Source: a virus
IMG/VR virus record: IMGVR_UViG_3300008448_000462
Coordinates: 1-28,500 of that record
Direction: 5' to 3' (one strand)
DNA length: 28,500 bases
Positions within the stretch are counted from its first letter, which is position 1; every line of letters starts with the position of its first letter. A program made the position numbers and the translations under genes. This document shows positions 9,442 to 28,500 of the stretch, in pieces. Below the pieces are notes generated by a model that did not search any database, was not told the origin of the DNA, and saw nothing but the letters and a program-made list of their open reading frames with translations.

Positions 9442-10368
9442 ATGGCATTCCCCACCGCCCCCGGTCGCCCGAACTATTCGGGCAACTTCATCCCCGAAAT
9501 CTGGTCGGGCAAGCTGATTGAGAACTTCTACGACGCCACCGTTCTCACGGCTATCTCCAACACCGACTACGAAGGCGAGATCAAGCAGTACGGCGACACG
9601 GTCAACATCCGTGGCACGCCGAACATCACGATCCGCGAATACGTCAAGGGCCAGAACCTTGTCGTGGAAACCCCGGACAAGCCGAAAATCCAGCTTCTCA
9701 TCGACAAGGGCGAGTACTTCTCCTGCGTCGAGGACGACATCGACCGCGTTCAGACGGACATCAAGCTGATGGACGAATGGGCGAAGGATGCGTCCGAGCA
9801 GATGAAGATCAAGATCGACCAGCGCGTCCTCACCGACATGCTGCCGGACATCGGTGCCCTCAACAAGGGAACTGCCGCTGGTGCCCAGTCGCTCGCGTTC
9901 AACCTCGGCTCCTCGGCTTCTCCCCTCACCATCACCAAGGACGGCGCAGGCGGCACCACTTCCGTGATCGACCTCATCGTCGACATGGGTTCGGTGCTGG
10001 ACGAAGCCAACTGCCCCGAGGGTGGTCGCTTCCTCGTCATCCCGGCTCGCATGGCGAACCTGATCAAGAAGTCGGAACTCAAGGACGCGTCGATCTCCGG
10101 CGACAGCCAGTCTGTCATCCGCAACGGTCGCCTCGGCATGATCGACCGCTTCACGCTGTACGTGAGCCACAACCTCAATGTGTCCTCGAACAAGTACAGC
10201 CTCATCGCTGGCACCAAGATGGGCCTCACCTTTGCGTCGCAGATGACGCAGATGGAGACCCTTCGTTCTGAAACCACCTTCGGTGATATCATCCGTGGTC
10301 TGCAGGTTTACGGCTACAAGGTCGTCAAGCCGGAAGCACTGTCCATGGCTGTGGCCACCTTCGCTTAA
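9442..10368 (+). CDS. Major capsid protein (HK97-fold expected)
   Basis: This 308-residue protein begins MAFPTAPGRPNYSGNFIPEI and is preceded by GGAG 7 bases upstream. It has the layout of podovirus capsid proteins: an N-arm with FIPEIWSGKLIENF, an E-loop region with YGDTVNIRGTPNITIREY, a long spine helix near residues 95-135 (IDRVQTDIKLMDEWAKDASE), an A-domain part with a FLVIPARMANLIKKS helix, and a C-terminal stretch FGDIIRGLQVYGYKVVKPE typical of the family. High Ala/Gly/Asp and well-optimised codons fit an abundant protein. No protease is nearby, and no long N-terminal delta domain is present, which agrees with use of a separate scaffold. Confidence 0.9.
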   Translation: MAFPTAPGRPNYSGNFIPEIWSGKLIENFYDATVLTAISNTDYEGEIKQYGDTVNIRGTPNITIREYVKGQNLVVETPDKPKIQLLIDKGEYFSCVEDDIDRVQTDIKLMDEWAKDASEQMKIKIDQRVLTDMLPDIGALNKGTAAGAQSLAFNLGSSASPLTITKDGAGGTTSVIDLIVDMGSVLDEANCPEGGRFLVIPARMANLIKKSELKDASISGDSQSVIRNGRLGMIDRFTLYVSHNLNVSSNKYSLIAGTKMGLTFASQMTQMETLRSETTFGDIIRGLQVYGYKVVKPEALSMAVATFA

Positions 10369-10383
10369 TAGGAGCACAGACAC

Positions 10384-10854
10384 ATGGTTGCTTATACGGA
10401 CAGCCTCGGTATCAACAAGGGCAGCGCCGCCCTTGCTGGTTCCTACACCAACCGCCTCTCGGTGATCGAATACGTCATCGACTTCGCCAAGATCGCTGCC
10501 GCCCGCGTGGCTGCTGGTGCTACCGCACTGGCCTCTACCGACACGCTGGTTCTGGCGACCCTGCCGAAGGGCACCTACATCATCGGTGGCAGCACTCGCG
10601 TGCTCACCGCTGAGGGTGCTGCTGGCACCATCGACCTCGGCATTACCGGCTCGCTCACGCTGTTCGGTAACGATGTGGACTGCAACGCGGCGGCGGGCAC
10701 CATGCTCGGCACCACGACTGCGGCCTTCCTCGCCGCCGACACCTCGCTGGTGATGACGGTGAACTCGAACAGCATGGATGCCGCCAAGGTTCGTCTGACG
10801 ATCCTTGCCATCGACGCCGGTACCAACGCTGGTACCATCCCCAACGAGACGTAA
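10384..10854 (+). CDS. Small beta-rich virion protein, candidate capsid decoration
   Basis: This 156-residue protein follows the capsid gene by 15 bases with GGAG at 10371. It begins MVAYTDSLGINKGSAALAG. The core alternates short strands typical of jelly-roll or Ig-like structural proteins: VIEYVIDFAKIAAARVAAG, then LVLATLPKGTYIIGGSTRVL, then AGTIDLGITGSLTLFGND. There is no membrane segment and few charges. Position directly after the capsid gene and strong translation signals suggest a head decoration or similar high-copy protein; I know of comparable proteins after capsid genes but no name is certain. A UUCG hairpin follows the stop. Confidence 0.65.
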   Translation: MVAYTDSLGINKGSAALAGSYTNRLSVIEYVIDFAKIAAARVAAGATALASTDTLVLATLPKGTYIIGGSTRVLTAEGAAGTIDLGITGSLTLFGNDVDCNAAAGTMLGTTTAAFLAADTSLVMTVNSNSMDAAKVRLTILAIDAGTNAGTIPNET

Positions 10855-14607: not shown

Positions 14608-15912
14608 GTGGCTATCAAACTTTCTAACAACGCGTTCTCCCTTCTTGCCGCCGATATCACCAACAACGCCACCTCCTTGACGGTGACTTCTGGCGACGGT
14701 GATCTGTTCCCGGTACTGGGTGCAAACGACTATTTCTATTGCACGCTGCTTGATGTCGACAACAACATGGAAATCGTGCAGGTCACGGCCCGCACGGGCA
14801 ACCTGTTCACCATCATCCGTGCGCGCGAAGACACCACGGCGAAGTCGTTCAATGCCGGTTCTCGCGTAGAGCTTCGCGTCACTGCGCAGTCCGTGCTGGA
14901 CGCGGTGACGACCAACCTTACCTCCGTCACACTGGTCTCGTTCGGCGTAACGGCCACCGCTTCCGAACTGAACGTCCTCGACGGTATTACGTCCACCACC
15001 GCAGAGCTTAACCTGCTCGACGGCGCGATCATCACTACCTCCGAACTGAACATCCTCGACGGTGTTACCGCTTCGGCAAACGACATCAACAAGCTGGTCG
15101 GCCTCAACGCGACCACCGCCGAACTGAACAAGCTGTCCGGTGTTACTGCCACCCCCTCGGACATCAACAAGCTGTCCGGCCTCACCGCGTCGACTGCAGA
15201 ACTGAACAAGCTGGCCGGTGCCACGCTGACGACTGCAGAACTGAACAAGCTGACCGGTGTCACTGCCACCACGGCAGAGATCAACAAGCTCGCTGGCGTC
15301 ACCGTCACCACGGCGGAAATCAACCGTCTGGCCGGTGTCACCTCCAACATCCAGACCCAGATCAACAGCTTCGCCACGTTCCCCGCCGGGTCCGTGATCT
15401 CGTTCGCTGGTGCCACCGCACCTGTTGGCTGGCTGCTGTGTGATGGTGCGGCGGTTAGCCGGACCACCTATGCCACGCTCTTTACAGCCATCGGCACCAC
15501 GTACGGTGCAGGCAACGGCTCCACCACGTTCAACCTGCCTGACATGCGCGGGCGCGTAGCGGCTGGCAAGGACGACATGGGCGGCACTGCCGCCAACCGT
15601 CTGACCGGCACCTCCGGTGGTGTGGACGGTCTTACCCTCGGCTCTGCTGGCGGCTTGGAAACCCACGCGCTCACGACTGCCCAGATGCCGCTCCACGGCC
15701 ACCCGTGGTTCAGCACCTACACCACGCAGACTACGTTCCAGTCGAAGTCGACCGGCGGCTTCCCGCACTCTACTAACTCCACAGGTGTTCGCCCCGCCTA
15801 CACCGGCACGCCCAGCGGCGCGCAGGGTCAGCAGATCGGTGGCGCTGGTGGTAACCAAGCTCACAACAACGTCCAGCCAACCCTTGTGATGAACTCCATT
15901 ATCAAGACATGA
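14608..15912 (+). CDS. Tail fibre with collar domain
   Basis: The GTG start at 14608 follows a GGGGG stretch (near 14598-14602). The protein is 434 residues. Residues ~1-90 form a beta attachment domain (NNATSLTVTSGDGDLFP, FTIIRAREDT). Residues ~117-246 contain ten tandem 13-residue repeats of T-T-A-E-[LI]-N-K-L-[SA]-G-V-T-A type. After a helix (NIQTQINSFATFP) comes a phage tail collar domain (PF07484): AGSVISFAGATAPVGWLLCD, then GDGAAVSRTTYATLF-like, FNLPDMRGRVAAGKDDMGG. The C-terminus has HALTTAQMPLHGH and ends in NNVQPTLVMNSIIKT, as in many collar proteins. It probably forms a trimeric fibre. It overlaps the next gene (ATGA). Confidence 0.9.
   Translation: MAIKLSNNAFSLLAADITNNATSLTVTSGDGDLFPVLGANDYFYCTLLDVDNNMEIVQVTARTGNLFTIIRAREDTTAKSFNAGSRVELRVTAQSVLDAVTTNLTSVTLVSFGVTATASELNVLDGITSTTAELNLLDGAIITTSELNILDGVTASANDINKLVGLNATTAELNKLSGVTATPSDINKLSGLTASTAELNKLAGATLTTAELNKLTGVTATTAEINKLAGVTVTTAEINRLAGVTSNIQTQINSFATFPAGSVISFAGATAPVGWLLCDGAAVSRTTYATLFTAIGTTYGAGNGSTTFNLPDMRGRVAAGKDDMGGTAANRLTGTSGGVDGLTLGSAGGLETHALTTAQMPLHGHPWFSTYTTQTTFQSKSTGGFPHSTNSTGVRPAYTGTPSGAQGQQIGGAGGNQAHNNVQPTLVMNSIIKT
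14956..15345 (+). repeat. Ten tandem 13-residue repeats (39 bp)
   Basis: The units have the form TTAELNKLAGVTA with variants SELN, NDIN and SDIN, all in frame. Such repeats likely form a beta-helical or triple-stranded fibre shaft. The DNA of adjacent units is similar but not identical. Confidence 0.85.
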
Positions 15913-18548
15913 CGGCGCTCAAGATCACCAAGTTTCTCGGGACGGCTCCGCGCAATAGCCCAGAGCTTCTGTCCGACACATCTGCGCAGGTTGCGCGGAA
16001 TGCGAAGCTGTATTCTGGTGACCTCATTCCGTATCCGCAGCCCCTCATCGTGGCCAACACCAAGCGTACCGGCACGATCAGGACGATCTACGGTCTGCGT
16101 CAAGGTGCCAACGACGATCCCAAGTGGCTGTCGTTCTCCGACAAGGTCGACATCGTAACCCCGGCTACCGACGAGCTTGAGGAGCACCGCTTCTACTATG
16201 CTGGCGACGGCGTGCCGAAAGTCAGCACGTATGCTCTCGCCACCGGCAACAGCGCCGGTCCTTACCCTGTCGACTACTACGAGCTTGGGCTCCCGCTTCC
16301 GACTACGAAGCCGACCATAACGCCCACGGAATTTACGTCCGTCACTGCGCTGTCCTTCGCGCGTGATGCGTCCAACTTCGTCACGCTCACCACGTTCGAC
16401 AGTCACAATTTGAAGTCGGGCGCAGTCATCACTGTGTCTGGATTTGACTACCGCACCGGTACCTACAGCCGGTCGGGCACGACTATCACGGTGACGCTTA
16501 CTGATCACGGGCTGTCGTCGGGCTCCAACGTGTACATCGAGTTTACGTCCGGCACGGCCACGACCAACATCTACACGGTCACGGTGACCGGCACCAACAC
16601 GTTCACCTGCAGCGACACTGCGTCTGGTTCCACCAGTGGCAACATGCGGTTTGACATCCGCGACTTCAACACGATCACTGAGGTTGTCGTCATAGACGAC
16701 ACCACGATCTCGTACTTCGCTCCCGGCCCAGAAGTCGCGCAGACGACCGTCATCAAGTACGGCGAGTACACGCAGGTGGCTTCGGCCACGGCGACCGTCA
16801 CTTGCACGGCGCACGGCTTGGCTTCCGGTGATGTCGTCTATCTTCGTGTCACCTCTGGCACCGCCACCACTGGCGCGTACCCGGTGACTGTCACCGGAGC
16901 AAATACCTTCACAGTGATCTTGCCGGTCAGCGAGACAACCAGCGGTGATGCCGATATCTATCTCGTAGTAGGTAAGATCGACCTTGGCGATCAGGTTCAG
17001 GGCCGCGCATATCTGTACACTTGGTTTACACCGTGGCGCGAGGAGAGCATCGGCTCCGACCCGACTGAGCCCGTGTACATCCGCGAAGGACAGATCGTAA
17101 CCGTCACGGACCTGCCGAACTTCAAGCCTTCGGGCAAGAACAACATCGCTGGCGTCCGCCTGTACCGCACGCTGTCGTCGCCCACCGATAGCGACTTCTT
17201 CCTGCTCAAGACCCTGTGGTTCCCTGCGCTCGTCTCGCAGCTTAGCCGCACTGGCGGCACCGTGCGTGTTAAGATGGCGCAGTACCACAACCTCATCAAG
17301 GGCGACCGCTTCAAGCTGATCTGCGACACGGCCCCCACGTTCGATGCCGAGGGCGTGCTCGTCTCCCGCGTGATCAATGCCACCGAGTTCGAGTTCGTGC
17401 AGACCGGCGACGATGTTGCAGTCGCCAACGTGATCGGCACGCTCTACTACGATGTGTCGGAGAAGGAGGAGAACACGGCGCGCTACTGGGGTGACGCTGG
17501 CAACTTCACGTTCACCGACGACTTCAACTTCCGCAGCCTGCTCGACATCCTCAAGTCCACCGAATACGAGAAGCCGCCCGAAGGGCTCAAGGGGCTCACC
17601 GTTATTCAGTCGAACATCCTTGCCGGGTTCGTCGGCAACGATCTCTACCTGTCGGAGCCGGGGCAGTACCATGCTTGGCCCAGCCAGTACCGGCGCTCGT
17701 TCGAGTATGACATCGTGGCGCTTGCCTATGTCGGCGGCGTGCTGCTGGTGCTCACCACCGGCTACCCCTACATCGTGGAGGGCTCCAGCCCGGCTACCAT
17801 GGTGCCGCAGAAGATGGCGGTAATGTATCCGTGTCTAAGCGCAGCCTCTGTCACACAAACAAGTTTCGGTGTGATATGGTCTACGCACGACGGACTTGCC
17901 GTGTTCAGCACGGGCGGTACGCAACTGCTTACCAAGATCGTCCATCACAGCGACACATGGAATGACGCCATTGACCCCACCGAGATTGTGGGCAGCGTGT
18001 TCAAGGGCAACTTCATCGGGTCTGCCGAGACGGCTGCGCTCACGCTGGAGAGCCTTGAGACCACGGACGGCACCGGCATGTCGTTTGTCGACCTCGACTT
18101 CACGTTCACCTCGGCGTGGTACGACCCGGTCACCAACCGCTTGTACGCGGTGAGCGGCACTAACGGCGACATCTACCAGTGGGACGACCGCGCGCAGGGG
18201 GCTATGACCCTGCGCTGGAAGTCGAAGGTGTTTGTCACTCCGCTGTATGTCAACCTCGGCGCAGCCAAGGTCGTGGCCGACTACGATGGCGAGAGCGAGA
18301 GCCCGCTGTGGGAAAACATCACAGAAACTTGGAACACCTGCAATGTGCAGTGGAACGGCGGCGTGTCTGTCACGTTCAACCTGTACGCTAACAAGCAGCT
18401 AATATTCACAACCGAGCGCACCGACAGTGGCATATTCAGATTGCCCGCTGGGTACAAGAGCGATACGTATGAGGTTGAGGTGCTCAGCCCTGTTCGCGTC
18501 CGCTCCGTGCATCTTGCAGACACACCGTTGGGATTGCAGACAGTATGA
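15909..18548 (+). CDS. Tail nozzle / tail tubular B-like protein
   Basis: The 879 residues and position after adaptor genes fit the nozzle of short-tailed phages. The start TKFLGTAPRNSPELLSDTSA with QVARNAKLYSGDLIPYPQPL is the common nozzle-type opening; GLRQGANDDPKWLSFSDKV and LYTWFTPWREESIGSDPTEP followed by RLYRT-like core follow, and late parts have QYRRSFEYDIVALAYVGGVL, LVLTTGYPYIVEGSS and MYPCLSAASVTQTSFGVIWS. Between residues ~145 and 355, and again near 445-520, there are inserted beta modules with H-[GN]-L-x-x-G-x-x-V signatures. The protein is expected to form a hexameric tube. The start overlaps the collar gene; the end overlaps the next (ATGA). Confidence 0.82.
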   Translation: MTALKITKFLGTAPRNSPELLSDTSAQVARNAKLYSGDLIPYPQPLIVANTKRTGTIRTIYGLRQGANDDPKWLSFSDKVDIVTPATDELEEHRFYYAGDGVPKVSTYALATGNSAGPYPVDYYELGLPLPTTKPTITPTEFTSVTALSFARDASNFVTLTTFDSHNLKSGAVITVSGFDYRTGTYSRSGTTITVTLTDHGLSSGSNVYIEFTSGTATTNIYTVTVTGTNTFTCSDTASGSTSGNMRFDIRDFNTITEVVVIDDTTISYFAPGPEVAQTTVIKYGEYTQVASATATVTCTAHGLASGDVVYLRVTSGTATTGAYPVTVTGANTFTVILPVSETTSGDADIYLVVGKIDLGDQVQGRAYLYTWFTPWREESIGSDPTEPVYIREGQIVTVTDLPNFKPSGKNNIAGVRLYRTLSSPTDSDFFLLKTLWFPALVSQLSRTGGTVRVKMAQYHNLIKGDRFKLICDTAPTFDAEGVLVSRVINATEFEFVQTGDDVAVANVIGTLYYDVSEKEENTARYWGDAGNFTFTDDFNFRSLLDILKSTEYEKPPEGLKGLTVIQSNILAGFVGNDLYLSEPGQYHAWPSQYRRSFEYDIVALAYVGGVLLVLTTGYPYIVEGSSPATMVPQKMAVMYPCLSAASVTQTSFGVIWSTHDGLAVFSTGGTQLLTKIVHHSDTWNDAIDPTEIVGSVFKGNFIGSAETAALTLESLETTDGTGMSFVDLDFTFTSAWYDPVTNRLYAVSGTNGDIYQWDDRAQGAMTLRWKSKVFVTPLYVNLGAAKVVADYDGESESPLWENITETWNTCNVQWNGGVSVTFNLYANKQLIFTTERTDSGIFRLPAGYKSDTYEVEVLSPVRVRSVHLADTPLGLQTV

Positions 18549-20733: not shown

Positions 20734-22806
20734 ATGACCACGCAAAACTATAATGGTGGCGCAATCCTCGGCGGTGTGTCTGCTGAGACGCCTGACTGGC
20801 TCGGCTCCTACAACGAGGGCATGAACGCCGCCATCGACCAGAACACTGCGCTTCTTAACCAGAAAGAAGCCAAGCAGCGTATGGTCGAGAACGCCGCCGC
20901 CGAAGCGCGCCGCGCGCAGACGCATGGCTGGCTGGCTGATGAGCATCAGCGCATTCAAGACGCATGGGGGGCTACTCCCGGTAGTCTCGGCCCGATTGCA
21001 CGCCCGCAGGGGCCGGGCCTCGGCCCCATGCCCATGGTCAACGTCCCGGTTCCCGGCGCGCCTATTGCGCCCAACGCCGGACTGCAGACCGAACTGAACG
21101 CCCCCGCCCCGGCGGCTCCCGCTGCCAACCCCACAGATATTGTCACGCAGCTTCTGCCCGAGTGGGCACGCATGGAGCAGCAGGTCGGTCTGCCGCCCAA
21201 CTACATGGAAACCGTGTCGATGCTGGAAAGCTCCGGCGGCACGAATACCGGCGACGGTAAATATGTTGGTGTGTTCCAGATCGGTCCCGAGGTAGCAGCC
21301 GACTTCGGCGTCACGCCAGAGCAGCTTAAGGACCCGCGCATCAACTCGCAGGTCGCCGCCAAGCTGGCTGGCCGCAATGCAGCGGCACTTCGTGGCGCTC
21401 TTGGCCGTGAAGTGCAGGGCTGGGAAGTCTATCTCGCCCATCAGCAAGGGGCTGGTGGCGCGCTGGCGCTGCTCCGTAACCCGCAGATGAAGGCCCTCGA
21501 CGCCCTTGCGCAAGCATACGGCGGCGACCGCATGCAGGCTCAGCAGGCCATCATCCGCAATGGCGGCAACACCAACATGACTGCCGGTGAGTTCGCCGCT
21601 CTCTGGCAGCAGAAGTTCTCCGGTATCCGCCCGCAGCCGTTTACTGGCGAGGCCACCGACCCGCTCGCGCAGAAGCCTACCCTTGGCTCGCCCGCGCAGG
21701 CCCGCTTCGATCTCGGCCTTTCCGGCTACCCGGAAGACGGCGGGGCGTACAATTCCGACGCAGTGCAGCCCCTTGGCGACCTCCCCGCCGGGCTCAATAC
21801 GGACGGCACGTTCAAGACTGATGCACCTGCTGCGGCTCCTCCTGCCGCACCGGCCAACCCTAGTCCTGCCCCGGCTGCTCCTGCTCCTTCCAGCGCGCTA
21901 CCCGCTGCAGCAGGTACCCCCGGACTAACGCCGCCTTCGTCCGCTGGCGATGTGGTCCCTGCCGTCTCGCGTGGGGATTTTGCCGGGATTAACGCGCCGG
22001 GGCAGGGCACCATCGCTCAGCAGATCATGCGCACGCCCACCGGGCAGCAGACCGCGCTGCCTGACAGCGGCCAGTACATGGTCGAGCCCGCCAAAATCCA
22101 GTCGGATGCGTACGAGCTACAGCAGCTTCGCAACACGCTGGAAGTCCAGTATGCCGAAGCCGTACGGTTCCGTGACCGTGAGAGCATGAACGCCATTCGC
22201 GGTAAGGCCGTGGAAGTCGACGCCGCCCTGCGCCTCATGGACAACATGAAGTCCATCGCTGCCCTGCAGGGTGGAGATGTGAACCGGGTGTCGCAGACCC
22301 TGTCCCGCCTCACCGGTGGTAAGGTGCGTATCGAACCGCGCTCGGACGGCAAGTACAACGTGTACTACAACGGCCAGATGACTTACGAGGGTGTCACGCA
22401 GGACGCCTTCATTGCTGCACTGCGGTCGGAATACGACCAGCAGTATCAGGCTCAGGTGTCTGCTGCGCTCAAGCAGCAGGACGAGATCGGCATGGAAGTC
22501 CTCAAGAGCCAGCTTAAGACCAACGAGAACGTCACCAAGGAGACGGCGGTCGCCCTGCGCGAGCGCGCGACGAAGATGCTGGAAGCTGAACTCAAGCGCA
22601 TGGACCCTGAGAGCACTGTCAACGTGACGGAAGGCGCAGACGGCCCGTACGTTATCGTCACGCCCAAGACCGGTGGCGGCTCGCCGCGTATCTACGCAAT
22701 GCAGCCGGTGCGTGGTGTAGATGGTTCCCCGATGCTTGATGCCTCTGGTAATCCGAAACTTAAGCCGGTACTCTTGAACGGCGACAACTCCGTACCTGTT
22801 CAGTAA
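20734..22806 (+). CDS. Internal virion protein with lytic transglycosylase domain
   Basis: This 690-residue protein starts at ATG 20734, 8 bases after the previous stop, behind a GGGGG stretch. Residues ~140-297 form an SLT-type lytic transglycosylase: catalytic Glu is E165 in SMLESSGGTN, followed by GVFQIGPEVA (179-188) and YLAHQQGAGGALALL (233-247). Such domains cut the glycan strand so DNA and proteins can cross the peptidoglycan at infection. Upstream, residues 1-135 are helical then Pro-rich; residues ~345-405 form a Pro/Ala linker; the C-terminal ~250 residues are helical (DAYELQQLRNTLEVQYAEAV, later EMGMEVLKSQL-like). The role is thus virion-borne peptidoglycan opening rather than lysis. 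Confidence 0.85.
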   Translation: MTTQNYNGGAILGGVSAETPDWLGSYNEGMNAAIDQNTALLNQKEAKQRMVENAAAEARRAQTHGWLADEHQRIQDAWGATPGSLGPIARPQGPGLGPMPMVNVPVPGAPIAPNAGLQTELNAPAPAAPAANPTDIVTQLLPEWARMEQQVGLPPNYMETVSMLESSGGTNTGDGKYVGVFQIGPEVAADFGVTPEQLKDPRINSQVAAKLAGRNAAALRGALGREVQGWEVYLAHQQGAGGALALLRNPQMKALDALAQAYGGDRMQAQQAIIRNGGNTNMTAGEFAALWQQKFSGIRPQPFTGEATDPLAQKPTLGSPAQARFDLGLSGYPEDGGAYNSDAVQPLGDLPAGLNTDGTFKTDAPAAAPPAAPANPSPAPAAPAPSSALPAAAGTPGLTPPSSAGDVVPAVSRGDFAGINAPGQGTIAQQIMRTPTGQQTALPDSGQYMVEPAKIQSDAYELQQLRNTLEVQYAEAVRFRDRESMNAIRGKAVEVDAALRLMDNMKSIAALQGGDVNRVSQTLSRLTGGKVRIEPRSDGKYNVYYNGQMTYEGVTQDAFIAALRSEYDQQYQAQVSAALKQQDEIGMEVLKSQLKTNENVTKETAVALRERATKMLEAELKRMDPESTVNVTEGADGPYVIVTPKTGGGSPRIYAMQPVRGVDGSPMLDASGNPKLKPVLLNGDNSVPVQ

Positions 22807-22815
22807 GGGGAACAC

Positions 22816-25800
22816 ATGGCTGGGCTAAACGATCCCCTCACGCAACTTGACTATGGCGTGGATTACGCCCGTGGTCCGCAGAGCACCACGCAGCAGACCG
22901 GCCTTGCTGGGCTGGCTACTCCTGCCAACCTCGACATCGCCCGCGCCAACCAGAACGCCCTCGGCAGTCTGTCTCAGCTTGGCAACATGCAGCTTTCAGC
23001 ACCCCCGCCGCCCAGCGCCCCGCGCGGGCCGGTCCTCGCCATCAGCCGGTCCTCCGGCCAGATTTGGGCTAACGGCAAGCTGTTCACTATCGACGACGCG
23101 CAGGGTGCGCTCGACAGCCAGCAATATCTTTCTGCGGCCCCGGCTCCCGCCCCGGCTGCCGCCGCTGGCGACTGGGAAGCCCTCGACATGGACGCCTACA
23201 GCCAGCACATTGAGCAGATCAAGAACCCCGGCATGGGCACGCTGGCGTCCAAGAACTTCGGCATCGGCGTCGACAACATGCAGATGCTGGGCGGCTACGG
23301 CATGCAGTTCCTCGGTGCCGAGGAAACCGGACAGGCTGTCGTCAGGAGCCAGCTTGACGACCTCGCCAAGAACGCGCCGTACCAGCGCAACTTCGATGAG
23401 ATCGGCTCCGACCCGAACCGTGGCGTCATGGATTGGTTCATCGCCAACCTTGCGCAGCAGGGTCCGAACATCGTTGAGAGCGCGGTCACCGCAGCCATCG
23501 GTGCTGTAGCTGGCGGCGCAGCCGGTGGCGGTCCTAACCCGGCCACTGCCGTAGGCGGTGCCGTCACTGCCATGGTCGGCAAGCAGGCGTTCAAGCAGGC
23601 GCTTCTCGCTGCCGCCAAGAAGTACGCCGCTGGTGAAGCCCTCGACGCTGCCGAGACGAAGCTGCTCCGTGAGGCCGCTGGTCTTACCGCCGCTGCCCGT
23701 CAGCAGATCGCTTCCAAGGTCGGCACTTTCACTACTGACACCGCTGGCGTTACAACCCAGTTCGGAAAGCAGCAGGCGGTCAACGCAGCCAAAGATATTG
23801 TAGACGCCGGTACCAGCAAGATCGCCGCAGGCGGTCTCGCCCAAGCCAAGGTCGGCGGCGCAGCCATCGCCACTGGTGCGCAGAACTATGCCACTGGCGT
23901 AGCCGATATGTACGGTGAGAGCGTCGAGGGCGGTGATCCGTCTCGCGGCATGGCCGCGCTTGCTGGCGTTCCCTACGCCGCGCTGGAGACCCTGCCCGAG
24001 TTCATCGCTGCTGCCCGCATCTTCAAGGGTTTTGGTGCCAGCACCAAGTCGCTCACCGGCATGTCCACACTGGGCAAGACCGGCGAGATCGCCAAGCGTA
24101 TCGGCACGGGCGTAGCCGCTGGTGGTGCACTGGAAGGTTCCACCGAACTGGGGCAGGAGAGCCTCGGCATCGGCATGAACGCCGAGGTCGACCTCAACAG
24201 CCCAGAGGGCGTGTCGCGGATGCTGAACGCATTCGCAGCCGGTGCTGCCATCGGCGGCTTTGTCGGCGCAGGTTCCAACCTCAATACGGGCAAGCCGCAC
24301 AATCTCCTTGCTGGTGGGCTGCAGCCCGCTGACCAGAGCGGCAACACCATCCTCAGCGGCGAGATCATCCCGCCCACGCCGCCCAGCGGCTTGAAAGTGC
24401 CTGACGGTTCTGTGCCTCTGCTGGGTGGACCCACCCCGGCACAGCCTTCACTGGGTGGCACCACCATGTCCGGTTCGCCGTTCAGCGGCAACCAAGGCTC
24501 CTACTACACTGGCAACCCGGCAGACGATGCTGCGCTGAACCCGGCTGGCCCCATCCCCATGGGAGCCCCCGCGACACCCATGTCGCCCCTCCCCGGTCAG
24601 CCGCCTGTAAATATGTTGCCGAGCGCCAGCACGATCTATCAGGGCCAAGACCCCGGTGCGCAGCCGCCGCTGCAGATCACTGGCTCCACCGCGCCGACCC
24701 CCGTGCCGCCCCAGCTTCCCCCGGTTATGAACATGCCGGGGCCGGACCAGTACGGTTCTGCCCTGTCGCAGGTCGCCGCTGGTGATCTGCCGGGGGCCGT
24801 GCCGCCGCCCACTCCGGGGCTCAACCGGCTGCAGCAGTTGCAGCAGCAGGCCCGCACACAGACCACTGAGGCCAACAGCCAATCTGCGCTCGCGCAGACT
24901 GCTCGCGCCGAGGGGGGCAACCCCCTTACGCTTAAGCAAATGCTTGGGCAGAAGGTCGAGCAGTCTGCGCCAGCGCCCGCTGGCAAGGCGAAGCTGGCCA
25001 AGGGCAAGGCACCCAAGGTCGTAGCTCCCAAGGCTACGGTGCCGGTCACCACGGACGCGCCCGCTGCCCCGGTCGGCAAGACCAAGTTGGCGGCGAAGGT
25101 CGCTGCACCCGTGGCGGTTCCCGCCGCACAGGCCAAGCTGCAGAAGGGCAAGGCCGTCCAGAAGGTCGCGGAAGAAACCAGCACGCACCCGGTCCATGAC
25201 AAGTTCATCGTGGAACTGGACGATGCGCGCATGAACCTTGAGAGCAAGGGCAAGCTGCGGGCTATCGCCACGCGGGCGCTCAAGGCTGGTGTGCTGACAC
25301 AGGCCGACCTCAAGGAAGTCGAGCCGATGTTCAAGGACCGCGACATGAGCGCGGACGACATCGCGCCCGAACTGTCCAGCATGATCGAACGCAACAAGGA
25401 AGCCGCAGCGGCTCCGGTTGCCGAGGAGAAGCCCGCGCCCAAGGAGCGCAAGGCTTCGCCTGAGAAGACCTTCTCGCTCAAGCCTAAAGAGGAGGCGAAG
25501 GCACCGGAGGCTCCAAGCCCAAAAGCGGAAGGGGCCGCAGCCGCCCCTTCGCAAAAGGCTGAGGCGGTAGAGGACACGGACGCTGACGAGGAGTTCGAGC
25601 AGGCGGTCAAAGAGATCGTCCTTATGAACACCGAGGAAGCCTACGACCAGCGGAGCGAGTTTGAAAACCTCGACACCGCCCTGTGGATTTATTGGGACAA
25701 CATTGCCGACACCATCACCGAGAACTACAAGGACAAGGACCGGGATCGCGCTTACAAAGTTGCTGAGTACCACTTCGGTAAGCAGCACGATCACTATATG

Positions 25801-28500
25801 GCACGGGAAGCCAAGGAGCGTGCCAAGACCGCACTGGCTCTCGTTGACCAGAACAAGCCGCTCGTCGACCCCGAAGTTGAGGCGCGTATTGCGCGCGTCC
25901 AGCGGGAAGACGCAGAGATCGCTGCACTCTCCGAGCAGGATGACATGGCCGAGGTCGAAGACCTCATCAAGTCGGTCAACACCAACGAGCCCGGCAGCGT
26001 GGAGTACGAGGACAGCCTGTCTGCCCTGATCGGCTATGCCAAGGACGGCAAGACCGAGAAGAAGGCGCGAGCGGCTGCGTCCGAGTACATCGAAAACGAG
26101 ATCGACCCATCCGAACTCAAGGTCTTTGAGCGGTCCACGCAGGACGCTGTGACCCAGACGGAACTCGACTTCAACAACATCACGACCACCATGGAGCAAG
26201 TCAACAATGGGGAGGTGACGCTTACTCAGAAGTTGGTGGGTATCCTTGTGTCGGCGTGGAAGCGCATCAAGGATAAGAACTTCAAGTACGGCGACATCCC
26301 GCTGTCGGCCTACATCAAGGGTGGCCCGCAGTTCTTCCACATGAAGGACGGCAAGGTGGTGCCCAAGAGCGATGGGCGCTTCTCCACGACCATGTGGGAC
26401 AAGCCGGACGCCACGTTCAACGTCGGTAAGATGCGGCTCAGCATCGGCAAGTTTGTTTCCAAGCTGTCGATGAAGCCCACCGTGTACGTGTACAAGGATC
26501 AGGCCGACCTCAAGGCGCAGAACCCGGACCTGCACAAGAAGCTGGCGGCTGGTCGCCCCGGCGACTTCGATACCGTTATGGCGTCCGGTTACTCCATGGG
26601 CGATATCGTCGTCATATTCTCTGACCGCATCGGCAGCGAGCAGCACCTCGCCTTCGTGCTGGCGCACGAAACGCTGGGCCACTTCGGTCTGCGCGGCCTG
26701 ATGGACAAGGGCGACTTCAACAAGATTATGACCAGCCTCTACGACACCGACAGTCGACTGACTGCGGCTGTCGACGCGGCCATGCAGATACGCGGGCTGA
26801 GCAAGGCGGAAGCCGTAGAGGAATATCTTTCTGACTACGCAGCGCAGCTTCATACCAGTCTGGTGCGGCGCGTGTGGAACGGCGTCAAAGGCGCTCTCAA
26901 CCGGGTGGGTATCCAGTTCGGTGACGAGGCCATGCGCTATATCCTGAGCCAGTCTAAGCGGTACGTGAAGACCGGAGAGAAGACCGGAGTGTTCACTTCC
27001 TCGTCGGTCATGCACCGCATGTGGGGCGTGGAGAACGCACAGGTCGGACGCTTCGCCCAAGTGGATACCGCCAGCCAGAACGAGATGGTGGCCGACATGC
27101 TGCGCCACAGCGCGGCCATCCCCATGAACCTCAAGGACGCAGGGCGCACCCTTGCAGACGCACTTGGTTCGTGGGACAGCTTCAAGACGGCGGTGTTCAG
27201 CCTCTCCAACTATCAGGCGCTGCGCAACCCCGGCCTCTATGCGTTCGAGAAACTGCTGGACGAAACCCGCCAGCACGAACAGTACGTGTACAACAAGTAC
27301 AACGCTAAGCTGGAAAAGCTGCTGTTCAAGAGCGAGGCGCATCGCGCCGCTGTCAGCCGTATGTTGCTGGAAGGCCGCGCCGTGTCGGTCTACCGCTTGC
27401 TGCAGGAACCCTTCGATCCCAAGGACCGCAGCACCCAGCTATTCAAGCTGAACCCCACCACTGGTGATCTCGAACAGAACATCACTGCCGTCGATGAGTT
27501 CATCAAGAAGGGCATCCTGTCCTTCGATGAGATGAAGAACGGCGTCGAGTACACCCGCGAGGTGATGAACAAAGACGGCGCGATGGAGAAGCGCAAGGAG
27601 AAGTTCAAGGGCTACCCCGAACTGACCCAAGACCAGTACGATGATTACGTGCTGTCTCGCCGCACCGTGGCTGACGTTGAGATGGAGTTGCTCAAGGCCA
27701 AGTACGCCAACTTCCTGCAGACCGAGGGCGTGTCGAAGAAAGCTGTCCGCCGCTTCCTCAAGAACAGCAAGGTGGGCGATGAGGCCGACAAACTCGTAAA
27801 GCGCACGTTCAACAAATACAAAGAAATCTACACGGCTGGTTACACCGTCGATGACCGTGGCAACCTTGAGCCCGGCACCAAGGAGATGGCGGACGCCGAC
27901 AGCTTCCTTGAGGCGGTCAACCGCGCCATCATCAGCGCCGACGACAAGAATGACCAAGCCGTGCGCGACTTCTTCGACAAGCAGAAGGTTGCCGACGACT
28001 TCATGGACAACCTCAAGGAGTTCCGTGCCAACCGCAAGGTGCCGGACGGCGACTTGACGTTCCTGTTCCAGAACGAGGTGAAGCGCATCGTCCTTGAGGA
28101 TGTGAACCTCGGCGTCGAGGAGGAGCGCGCCAAGCGCACCATGGCTGGTGGCTACGTCCCGGTCATCCGCGACAAGGCGTTCGAGCTTCGCCTGCAGGCT
28201 TACGACAAGAACGACCAAGAGGTGAAGCTGCATGAGAACCACAAGAAGCTGCTGACCTACAGCCAGTTCGGAGAGCGCAGCACGGCGGCATCCGCAGCAG
28301 AACTTATTGACGCGCAGTTCGAGGGCAAGACGTTCGAGGTCTGGGCCGACAAGGGCGATGGCACGTTCGACAAGACCGAGGTCACGCTCAAGGCCAAGTA
28401 CGGCGATGCACTATCGCAGGTGGGTTCCGACCCGGCGCTGAACCTTGACGAGTTCATTCATGGCCTGCGGCTGTTCAAGATCAATCTCGCGCCTGACAAG
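22816..28500 (+). CDS. Giant internal/polyvalent virion protein with HExxGH metallopeptidase-like domain (3' end outside window)
   Basis: The frame from ATG 22816 (GGGG upstream) stays open for 1895 codons to the right edge. Segments: ~1-200 polar with Pro tracts; ~205-255 and ~378-490 Gly/Ala-rich hydrophobic stretches, including GVAAGGALEGSTELGQESLG, a pattern I associate with large phage internal proteins; ~510-700 Pro/Gly linker; ~715-800 Lys/Ala/Pro-rich; ~800-1170 charged helices; ~1170-1400 a metallopeptidase-like domain with HETLGH (1284-1289) followed by GLRGL, then EEYLSD (1335-1340) as possible third ligand; beyond 1400, helical, with GYVPVIRD near 1778. It probably enters the cell with the DNA and may act there. 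Which part is processed, and the C-terminus, cannot be seen. Confidence 0.85.
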   Translation, partial: MAGLNDPLTQLDYGVDYARGPQSTTQQTGLAGLATPANLDIARANQNALGSLSQLGNMQLSAPPPPSAPRGPVLAISRSSGQIWANGKLFTIDDAQGALDSQQYLSAAPAPAPAAAAGDWEALDMDAYSQHIEQIKNPGMGTLASKNFGIGVDNMQMLGGYGMQFLGAEETGQAVVRSQLDDLAKNAPYQRNFDEIGSDPNRGVMDWFIANLAQQGPNIVESAVTAAIGAVAGGAAGGGPNPATAVGGAVTAMVGKQAFKQALLAAAKKYAAGEALDAAETKLLREAAGLTAAARQQIASKVGTFTTDTAGVTTQFGKQQAVNAAKDIVDAGTSKIAAGGLAQAKVGGAAIATGAQNYATGVADMYGESVEGGDPSRGMAALAGVPYAALETLPEFIAAARIFKGFGASTKSLTGMSTLGKTGEIAKRIGTGVAAGGALEGSTELGQESLGIGMNAEVDLNSPEGVSRMLNAFAAGAAIGGFVGAGSNLNTGKPHNLLAGGLQPADQSGNTILSGEIIPPTPPSGLKVPDGSVPLLGGPTPAQPSLGGTTMSGSPFSGNQGSYYTGNPADDAALNPAGPIPMGAPATPMSPLPGQPPVNMLPSASTIYQGQDPGAQPPLQITGSTAPTPVPPQLPPVMNMPGPDQYGSALSQVAAGDLPGAVPPPTPGLNRLQQLQQQARTQTTEANSQSALAQTARAEGGNPLTLKQMLGQKVEQSAPAPAGKAKLAKGKAPKVVAPKATVPVTTDAPAAPVGKTKLAAKVAAPVAVPAAQAKLQKGKAVQKVAEETSTHPVHDKFIVELDDARMNLESKGKLRAIATRALKAGVLTQADLKEVEPMFKDRDMSADDIAPELSSMIERNKEAAAAPVAEEKPAPKERKASPEKTFSLKPKEEAKAPEAPSPKAEGAAAAPSQKAEAVEDTDADEEFEQAVKEIVLMNTEEAYDQRSEFENLDTALWIYWDNIADTITENYKDKDRDRAYKVAEYHFGKQHDHYMAREAKERAKTALALVDQNKPLVDPEVEARIARVQREDAEIAALSEQDDMAEVEDLIKSVNTNEPGSVEYEDSLSALIGYAKDGKTEKKARAAASEYIENEIDPSELKVFERSTQDAVTQTELDFNNITTTMEQVNNGEVTLTQKLVGILVSAWKRIKDKNFKYGDIPLSAYIKGGPQFFHMKDGKVVPKSDGRFSTTMWDKPDATFNVGKMRLSIGKFVSKLSMKPTVYVYKDQADLKAQNPDLHKKLAAGRPGDFDTVMASGYSMGDIVVIFSDRIGSEQHLAFVLAHETLGHFGLRGLMDKGDFNKIMTSLYDTDSRLTAAVDAAMQIRGLSKAEAVEEYLSDYAAQLHTSLVRRVWNGVKGALNRVGIQFGDEAMRYILSQSKRYVKTGEKTGVFTSSSVMHRMWGVENAQVGRFAQVDTASQNEMVADMLRHSAAIPMNLKDAGRTLADALGSWDSFKTAVFSLSNYQALRNPGLYAFEKLLDETRQHEQYVYNKYNAKLEKLLFKSEAHRAAVSRMLLEGRAVSVYRLLQEPFDPKDRSTQLFKLNPTTGDLEQNITAVDEFIKKGILSFDEMKNGVEYTREVMNKDGAMEKRKEKFKGYPELTQDQYDDYVLSRRTVADVEMELLKAKYANFLQTEGVSKKAVRRFLKNSKVGDEADKLVKRTFNKYKEIYTAGYTVDDRGNLEPGTKEMADADSFLEAVNRAIISADDKNDQAVRDFFDKQKVADDFMDNLKEFRANRKVPDGDLTFLFQNEVKRIVLEDVNLGVEEERAKRTMAGGYVPVIRDKAFELRLQAYDKNDQEVKLHENHKKLLTYSQFGERSTAASAAELIDAQFEGKTFEVWADKGDGTFDKTEVTLKAKYGDALSQVGSDPALNLDEFIHGLRLFKINLAPDK
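26665..26682 (+). other. HExxGH metal-binding motif within giant protein
   Basis: Codons for H-E-T-L-G-H. Two His and one Glu would bind zinc and activate water; the later EEYLSD (26818-26835) could supply a Glu ligand. The six-residue spacing is HExxGH rather than HExxH, as in the dipeptidyl-peptidase III family (M49), and, as far as I recall, in some phage polyvalent-protein peptidases. Confidence 0.65.

What the first reader, a model, noticed from the sequence alone, without database searches (positions are those of the whole stretch)
26300..26990. HExxGH-type metallopeptidase-like domain with a second EEYLSD motif
HETLGH at residues 1284-1289 lies in a predicted helix (LAFVLAHETLGHFGLRGL), and EEYLSD comes 46 residues later. 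M49 peptidases use HExxGH plus EExx[AS][DE]; the pair here mirrors that spacing class, though overall similarity to M49 is not visible. A virion-delivered protease with this motif could process the giant protein itself, other ejection proteins or host targets.
Basis: partly seen in the sequence, partly recalled or inferred. Interest (0 to 1): 0.7.

Follow-up and report, generated by a model that had tools for sequence, protein, structure and literature searches.

The report
Zinc-protease-like domain in giant phage protein
A very large protein that this phage probably injects into its host carries a strictly conserved zinc-protease-like domain, a new member of a protease group already known from other giant phage proteins such as the N4 virion RNA polymerase; its substrate is still unknown.

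Summary
HETLGH (residues 1284-1289, 26665-26682) and EEYLSD (from residue 1335) lie in a ~200-residue domain (residues ~1201-1400) of a giant ORF that the window truncates. The HExxGH motif alone could be chance. But all 79 aligned sequences (window plus 78 environmental relatives) keep H1284, E1285, G1288, H1289, G1291, E1332, E1335, E1336 and D1340, and the two motifs are the most conserved stretches of the ~2,400-2,950-residue protein. All 58 loci fetched by an unrelated C-terminal region whose ORF reaches the domain carry both motifs. AlphaFold models (pLDDT 84, pTM 0.82) give a minimal zincin-like core; structural matches are mainly zincins (lethal factor, PPEP, IrrE/PprI, ArdC) at middling Z. 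It is not recognisably an M49 peptidase: only the motif pair is shared. It belongs with the zincin 'MPTase' domains of polyvalent proteins, for which a HEXXXH subset was published in 2017, and is distantly similar to the HExxH domain of N4 vRNAP. The gene ends a podovirus structural/ejection operon, behind a transglycosylase gene. Most likely it is an injected zinc protease that processes its own giant protein. Motifs, kinship and fold are supported; zinc binding, activity and substrate are inferred.

The parts
22816..28500 (+). Giant ejection-type (polyvalent-like) protein gene, ATG with AAGGGG ribosome-binding-like site, truncated by the window end (1,895 codons seen; complete relatives ~2,400-2,950 residues)
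26416..27015 (+). Zincin-like metallopeptidase domain, residues ~1201-1400; most conserved part of the protein
   Evidence: conservation; AlphaFold models
26479..26493 (+). First strand of the predicted core (residues 1222-1226)
26587..26619 (+). Second and third strands of the predicted core (residues 1258-1261 and 1264-1268)
26638..26697 (+). Active-site helix, residues 1275-1294, with HETLGH (26665-26682): H1284, E1285, H1289
26803..26856 (+). Second helix, residues 1330-1347, with EAVEEYLSD: E1332, E1335, E1336 (likely third zinc ligand) and D1340
24316..25575 (+). Low-complexity Pro/Ala/Lys/Gly-rich linker, residues ~501-920, possible site of processing (inference)
   Evidence: composition and low conservation
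20734..22806 (+). Gene just upstream: 690-residue protein with transglycosylase-like segment (T7 gp16-type lysis domain on a separate protein)
   Evidence: counterpart in relative L014 matches 'internal virion protein with endolysin domain'
15909..18548 (+). Internal virion protein (phrog_511) of the same operon
9442..10368 (+). Major head protein; nearest isolate Rhizobium phage RHph_TM3_14A, 51% identity

Best explanation
The region encodes a minimal zincin-type metallopeptidase domain of the HEXXXH (HExxGH) kind found in polyvalent proteins. It sits in the middle of a giant ejection-type protein of a largely uncultured podovirus group. Predicted mechanism: H1284, H1289 and E1336 hold one zinc ion and E1285 activates the attacking water; E1335 and D1340 support the site. 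The protein is probably packaged in the virion and ejected with the DNA, and the domain most likely cuts the giant polypeptide itself (for instance in its low-complexity linker) during assembly or after entry, releasing modules. Shown here: motifs, invariance, predicted fold, family kinship, operon position. Inferred: zinc binding, proteolysis, virion packaging of this very protein, self-cleavage. My estimates: identity as a polyvalent-type zincin ~0.9; active protease ~0.6; self-processing as the main role ~0.4.
For: Invariant H, E, H, E, E in 79 sequences, with fetch bias checked and an independent C-terminal query giving 58 of 58. Two AlphaFold models with zincin order of elements, pLDDT 84, pTM 0.81-0.82. 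VIA lists headed by zincins: lethal factor catalytic domain Z 8.2 (rmsd 4.2, 161 aligned), PPEP-3 6.6, IrrE 6.3 (rmsd 2.7, 91 aligned), ArdC 6.0. Viral library hits at E<=0.001 include several named large polyvalent proteins. Profile-profile match to domains of recognised polyvalent proteins, probability 99.4, E 3.6e-21 (their LPD38/LPD39/InPase/ART/PBECR5 domains). Similarity to the N4 vRNAP HExxH domain, probability 89, E 2.3e-6. HEXXXH subset and self-processing proposal published (PMC5512222). Position at the end of the ejection operon and C-terminal homology to an H66 giant protein annotated as verified in the virion by mass spectrometry.
Against: No Pfam or NCBIfam model matches and Foldseek against PDB gives nothing at E<=0.001; the VIA Z values are middling. 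The window-type profile alone matches N4 only with probability 25. No zinc site could be measured and nothing shows activity. N4 vRNAP, the best studied protein of this plan, is reported without degradation (PMC12633501), which speaks against self-cleavage before ejection in that case.
Confidence: 0.7

Rival explanations
1. An active zinc protease whose main target is a host protein: an injected effector acting on defence, envelope or transcription, rather than on the phage protein itself.
For: The published analysis of polyvalent MPTases leaves this open. The domain is the best conserved part of the protein, as expected for a catalytic function needed in every infection.
Against: No target or host-specific feature is visible. 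Strict conservation across a broad phage group fits a phage-encoded substrate at least as well as a fast-evolving host target.
Confidence: 0.25
2. A zincin-like fold without proteolysis: a structural, metal-binding or pseudo-enzyme domain, or a HExxH oxygenase-like domain, serving packaging or ejection.
For: In N4 the region holding this domain is required for encapsidation while vRNAP is packaged unprocessed (PMC5512222) and without visible degradation (PMC12633501). The N4 authors note that HExxH also occurs in radical-SAM/alpha-ketoglutarate enzymes; the HExxH oxygenase domain of ChlB is in the VIA list at Z 4.6.
Against: Invariance of the general base E1285 together with both His and the EE pair points to catalysis; zincin peptidases rank above the oxygenase.
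Confidence: 0.25
3. A member of peptidase family M49 (dipeptidyl peptidase III).
For: HExxGH and EExx[SA]D match the M49 motif pair in all 79 sequences, and M49 also alternates between HEXXGH and HEXXH (PMC5805324), as does this wider family (MetMV HELTH; Limnobacter second copy).
Against: PF03571 matches none of 8 records, this one included, while its control rings in Bacteroides ihuae. PDB profile searches find no M49 chain. The domain is about a third of the size.
Confidence: 0.02
4. A chance HExxGH motif in an unrelated helical region.
For: The motif pattern occurs in 19 of 100 shuffled windows.
Against: Strict conservation in 79 sequences and in an independently fetched set, plus a zincin-like model.
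Confidence: 0.01

Closest known systems
Zincin-like MPTase domains of polyvalent proteins (Iyer et al. 2017, PMC5512222)
   Same: Predicted core of helix, three strands and two helices with HEXXH or HEXXXH and a later Glu; found in giant injected phage proteins; a HEXXXH subset is described; homologues found here sit beside LPD38, LPD39, InPase, ART-PolyVal and PBECR5 domains.
   Different: This podovirus subfamily has no Pfam or NCBIfam model, adds an invariant EEYx[SA]D motif, and no other known polyvalent domain was recognised in its protein.
C1 HExxH domain of N4 virion RNA polymerase
   Same: HExxH and later Glu (NEF), position upstream of a large C-terminal part in a giant protein encoded next to other ejection proteins; profile-profile probability 89.
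   Different: N4 has HEXXH, not HEXXXH, and a T7-type RNA polymerase module; the A4 profile alone gives only probability 25. No polymerase was recognised here.
Giant protein EVB41_084 of Rhizobium phage RHph_TM3_14A
   Same: Equivalent giant gene in the isolate with the nearest major capsid protein; zincin motifs HEATH and EEFVAE; related C-terminus.
   Different: HEXXH form, weak overall similarity, annotated only as hypothetical protein.
Giant 'PLxRFG' proteins of F116/H66-like Pseudomonas phages and DarB-like protein of phage Y7
   Same: Homologous last ~500 residues; H66 protein annotated as verified in the virion; Y7 has a HELGGH zincin segment.
   Different: Domains upstream differ; H66 has two HEXXH segments that the A4 profile does not detect.
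Peptidase family M49 (DPP III)
   Same: HExxGH plus EExx[AS][DE] motif pair.
   Different: No profile similarity and about a third of the size; probably convergent or very deep.
Lethal-factor-type, PPEP, IrrE/PprI and ArdC zincin folds
   Same: Predicted fold, VIA Z 5.5-8.2.
   Different: Sequence identity 8-26%; not family members by sequence; fold only.

Membership tests
Zincin-like MPTase domains of polyvalent proteins | HEXXH or HEXXXH on one helix and a Glu on a following helix | tested here: met
   Invariant in 79 of 79; both on predicted helices
Zincin-like MPTase domains of polyvalent proteins | Core of N-terminal helix, three-stranded sheet and two C-terminal helices | tested here: met
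   Order of elements in both AlphaFold models; matches mainly zincins; prediction only
Zincin-like MPTase domains of polyvalent proteins | Sequence kinship with domains in recognised polyvalent proteins | tested here: met
   hhalign probability 99.4, E 3.6e-21 against homologues in giant proteins, three of which were scanned and carry LPD38, LPD39, InPase, ART-PolyVal or PBECR5
Zincin-like MPTase domains of polyvalent proteins | Match to the Pfam model MPTase-PolyVal PF18818 (one of the clades) | tested here: not met
   No match in this record or the four viral relatives. This model covers only part of the superfamily (12 clades), so the superfamily claim stands but membership of that clade does not
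Zincin-like MPTase domains of polyvalent proteins | Placement in one of the 12 published clades | not tested
Zincin-like MPTase domains of polyvalent proteins | Zinc binding and proteolytic activity | not testable with these tools
   Needs biochemistry
Peptidase family M49 | HExxGH and EExx[AS][DE] motifs | tested here: met
   79 of 79
Peptidase family M49 | Similarity to the M49 profile PF03571 | tested here: not met
   0 of 8 records at E<=10; control rings
Peptidase family M49 | 550-740-residue two-domain enzyme with five conserved regions | tested here: not met
   Conserved domain ~200 residues; definition from PMC5805324
Peptidase family M49 | M49 fold of the catalytic domain | tested here: inconclusive
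   No M49 chain among the listed matches, which excludes nothing
N4-type virion RNA polymerase | T7-like RNA polymerase module | tested here: inconclusive
   No polymerase domain recognised by Pfam in the window part or in three complete relatives; N4-type divergent polymerases may escape such a scan
N4-type virion RNA polymerase | HExxH C1 domain | tested here: met
   Distant similarity only: probability 89 with the broad set including the window row, probability 25 with the window-type set alone

The most novel reading that the evidence does not exclude
A widespread, largely uncultured podovirus group ejects an N4-vRNAP-like scaffold that lacks the polymerase and whose one strictly conserved activity is a HExxGH zinc protease, with a DPP III-like active-site motif reached independently, that cuts a host or ejectosome target at entry.
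Probability: 0.2. Interest if true: 0.55.

Novelty: new member of a known kind. Interest (0 to 1): 0.33.

Why it matters
Zincin domains are reported as the commonest domains of injected polyvalent phage proteins (PMC5512222), yet the papers read here give no proven substrate for one. This group offers a compact, strictly conserved example in a podovirus ejection-type protein, with relatives in cultured phages (Rhizobium phage RHph_TM3_14A, Pseudoalteromonas phage Y7), where virion proteomics and active-site knockouts could show whether such domains process the phage's own giant protein or a host target.

Tried and rejected
M49 membership: profile and PDB sequence searches negative; no M49 chain among listed structural matches. 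Chance motif: rejected by conservation. N4 vRNAP and P1 DdrB by single-profile HMM: not detected; only profile-profile comparison links N4. C-terminal homology to N4 vRNAP: not detected. HMO-2011, HTVC103P and H66: the A4 profile finds nothing, although H66 has HExxH motifs. The antisense 964-residue ORF 24448-27342 looks like a high-GC3 artefact: that frame is open across the domain in only 25 of 79 sequences. A first close-relative scan with low-degeneracy patterns found nothing, and an alignment of nine divergent sequences could not be used for a scan. PDB profile hits to designed helical proteins are helix-composition noise. Weak Pfam M48 matches in 32 of 52 members (best E 0.0054) are read as a general zincin signal, not as membership. 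The comparison A4 against A2 is circular and was replaced by A4 against A8.

Full report
What is there. The window is a 28.5-kb virus record with a podovirus structural operon on the + strand: head-tail adaptor, major head protein, structural proteins, tail fibre, an internal virion protein and a transglycosylase-containing protein. Last comes a giant ORF that starts at 22816 behind an AAGGGG site and runs off the window end after 1,895 codons. In relatives this gene is followed by a convergent primase/helicase gene, so it closes the late operon.

The observation. HETLGH is at residues 1284-1289 (26665-26682) and EEYLSD begins at 1335. The HExxGH DNA pattern is expected 0.27 times in a shuffled window, so the motif alone proves little. 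A pattern scan of viral contigs gave 80 loci. The alignment of 78 of them with the window shows H1284, E1285, G1288, H1289, G1291, E1332, A1333, E1335, E1336, Y1337 and D1340 in all 79 sequences. Because the scan used two motif patterns, I checked cross-retention: 36 loci that match only the EE pattern all keep HExxGHxG, and 9 that match only the HE pattern all keep EEYxxD. A scan with a C-terminal region some 900 residues downstream gave the same answer: motifs present in 58 of 58 loci whose ORF reaches the domain, the other 17 being cut by contig ends; many of these contigs are shared with the first set. The two motif 9-mers are the most conserved of the whole protein. The H-to-E spacing is 50-52.

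Fold. Two AlphaFold runs with different alignments (52 and 70 sequences) give the same elements, with mean pLDDT 83.7 and 83.8 and pTM 0.81 and 0.82: helix, strand, two short helices, two strands, the HExxGH helix (residues 1275-1294), two helices, and the EE helix (1330-1347). Foldseek against PDB gives no hit at E<=0.001. The VIA second look lists mainly zincins: lethal factor catalytic domain Z 8.2 (rmsd 4.2, 161 aligned), PPEP-3 6.6 (4.6, 156), MATCAP 6.4 (5.2, 132), IrrE 6.3 (2.7, 91), PprI 6.0 (3.1, 91), ArdC 6.0 (3.7, 115), aminopeptidase N 5.2 (4.8, 141). These Z values are middling and would not settle it alone. In the viral library the hits at E<=0.001 include several named large polyvalent proteins. 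No coordinates were returned, so the metal site was not measured.

Kinship. tblastn of the domain finds a Bacteroides phage giant protein at E 1e-5. From there the family extends to Vibrio, Methanosarcina and Dolichospermum phages and a Parabacteroides plasmid. Three of these giant proteins were scanned and carry recognised polyvalent-protein domains: LPD38, LPD39, InPase, ART-PolyVal or PBECR5. The profile of window-type domains matches the profile of the distant domains, window row left out, with probability 99.4 and E 3.6e-21. The distant set with the window row matches the N4-like vRNAP HExxH domain with probability 89 and E 2.3e-6, pairing HE with HE and EEY with NEF; the window-type profile alone gives only probability 25. 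Some homologues use HEXXH instead of HEXXXH: Methanosarcina virus MetMV and the second of two copies in a Limnobacter protein. The isolate with the nearest major capsid protein (51%), Rhizobium phage RHph_TM3_14A, has an equivalently placed giant protein with HEATH and EEFVAE and a related C-terminus. All this fits the published description of zincin MPTases as the hub domain of polyvalent proteins, including a HEXXXH subset with a probable helix bend (PMC5512222).

M49. The motif pair does match M49, and M49 too alternates between HEXXGH and HEXXH (PMC5805324). But PF03571 matches neither this record nor relatives while its control rings, no M49 chain is found by profile in PDB sequences, and the size differs. 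I read the resemblance as motif-level only.

The protein. The N-terminal ~500 residues are moderately conserved and glycine/alanine-rich; residues ~500-920 are a low-complexity linker; then a variable stretch, the metallopeptidase, and a long C-terminal part. The last ~500 residues of complete relatives, beyond the window, match giant proteins of F116/H66-like phages, one of them annotated 'PLxRFG' and verified by mass spectrometry as part of the virion. This resembles the N4 vRNAP plan seen by cryo-EM: a probably membrane-spanning N-terminal domain, low-complexity linker, polymerase, HExxH C1 domain and large helical C2, as beads on a string that pass a narrow channel (PMC12633501). No polymerase was recognised here, and no sequence homology of the C-terminus to N4 was detected.

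Mechanism. By the general zincin scheme, H1284, H1289 and a helix Glu bind zinc and E1285 activates water (inferred). E1336 rather than E1335 is favoured as ligand because N4-like domains keep only the second position and it is invariant in the 70-row alignment. Self-processing is the published proposal for such domains, argued from P1 DdrB (PMC5512222), and fits a long modular chain. N4 vRNAP, however, is reported without degradation (PMC12633501), so cleavage, if any, may come after ejection, or the target may be a host or ejectosome protein. A non-proteolytic role cannot be excluded.

Novelty. Neither the protein nor its domain matches Pfam or NCBIfam, but the kind of domain, its HEXXXH variant and its occurrence in injected giant phage proteins are published. 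I rate it a new member of a known kind. This work adds the strict conservation, the non-M49 assignment, and its placement in a podovirus ejection-type protein group seen here mainly in environmental contigs.

Noticed in passing
24448-27342, minus strand: A 964-residue ORF lies antisense to the giant gene across the finding. The frame is open across the domain in only 25 of 79 sequences and follows GC at third positions (0.81 in the window), so it looks like a composition artefact.
   Followed up: yes
window residues 1247-1251 (26554-26568): R1247, D1250 and F1251 are invariant in all 79 relatives but not shared with the distant Bacteroides-type homologues; a subfamily-specific feature next to the active-site fold, unexplained.
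   Followed up: no
L090 residues 2175-2195; L105 (N4 vRNAP) residues 3210-3231: Each giant protein has a single strongly hydrophobic segment, about 290 residues from its C-terminus in both. Profile search finds no homology there; coincidence or a shared membrane element.
   Followed up: partly
L099: A 3,750-residue Limnobacter protein carries two copies of the domain, one of them with HEXXH instead of HEXXXH.
   Followed up: no
L100/L199 (Rhizobium phage RHph_TM3_14A): The isolate nearest by capsid protein is annotated with attL/attR sites and a putative integrase, so this group may have temperate relatives.
   Followed up: no
L098 match at 10001-10414: A Deltaproteobacteria MAG copy reads AKEKIAQ where others have A-x-EE, so one of the two Glu positions varies.
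   Followed up: no
L103 (Pseudomonas phage H66, residues 2297 and 2493 of the giant protein): Two HEXXH segments in the virion-verified PLxRFG protein, not detected by the profile of this family.
   Followed up: no
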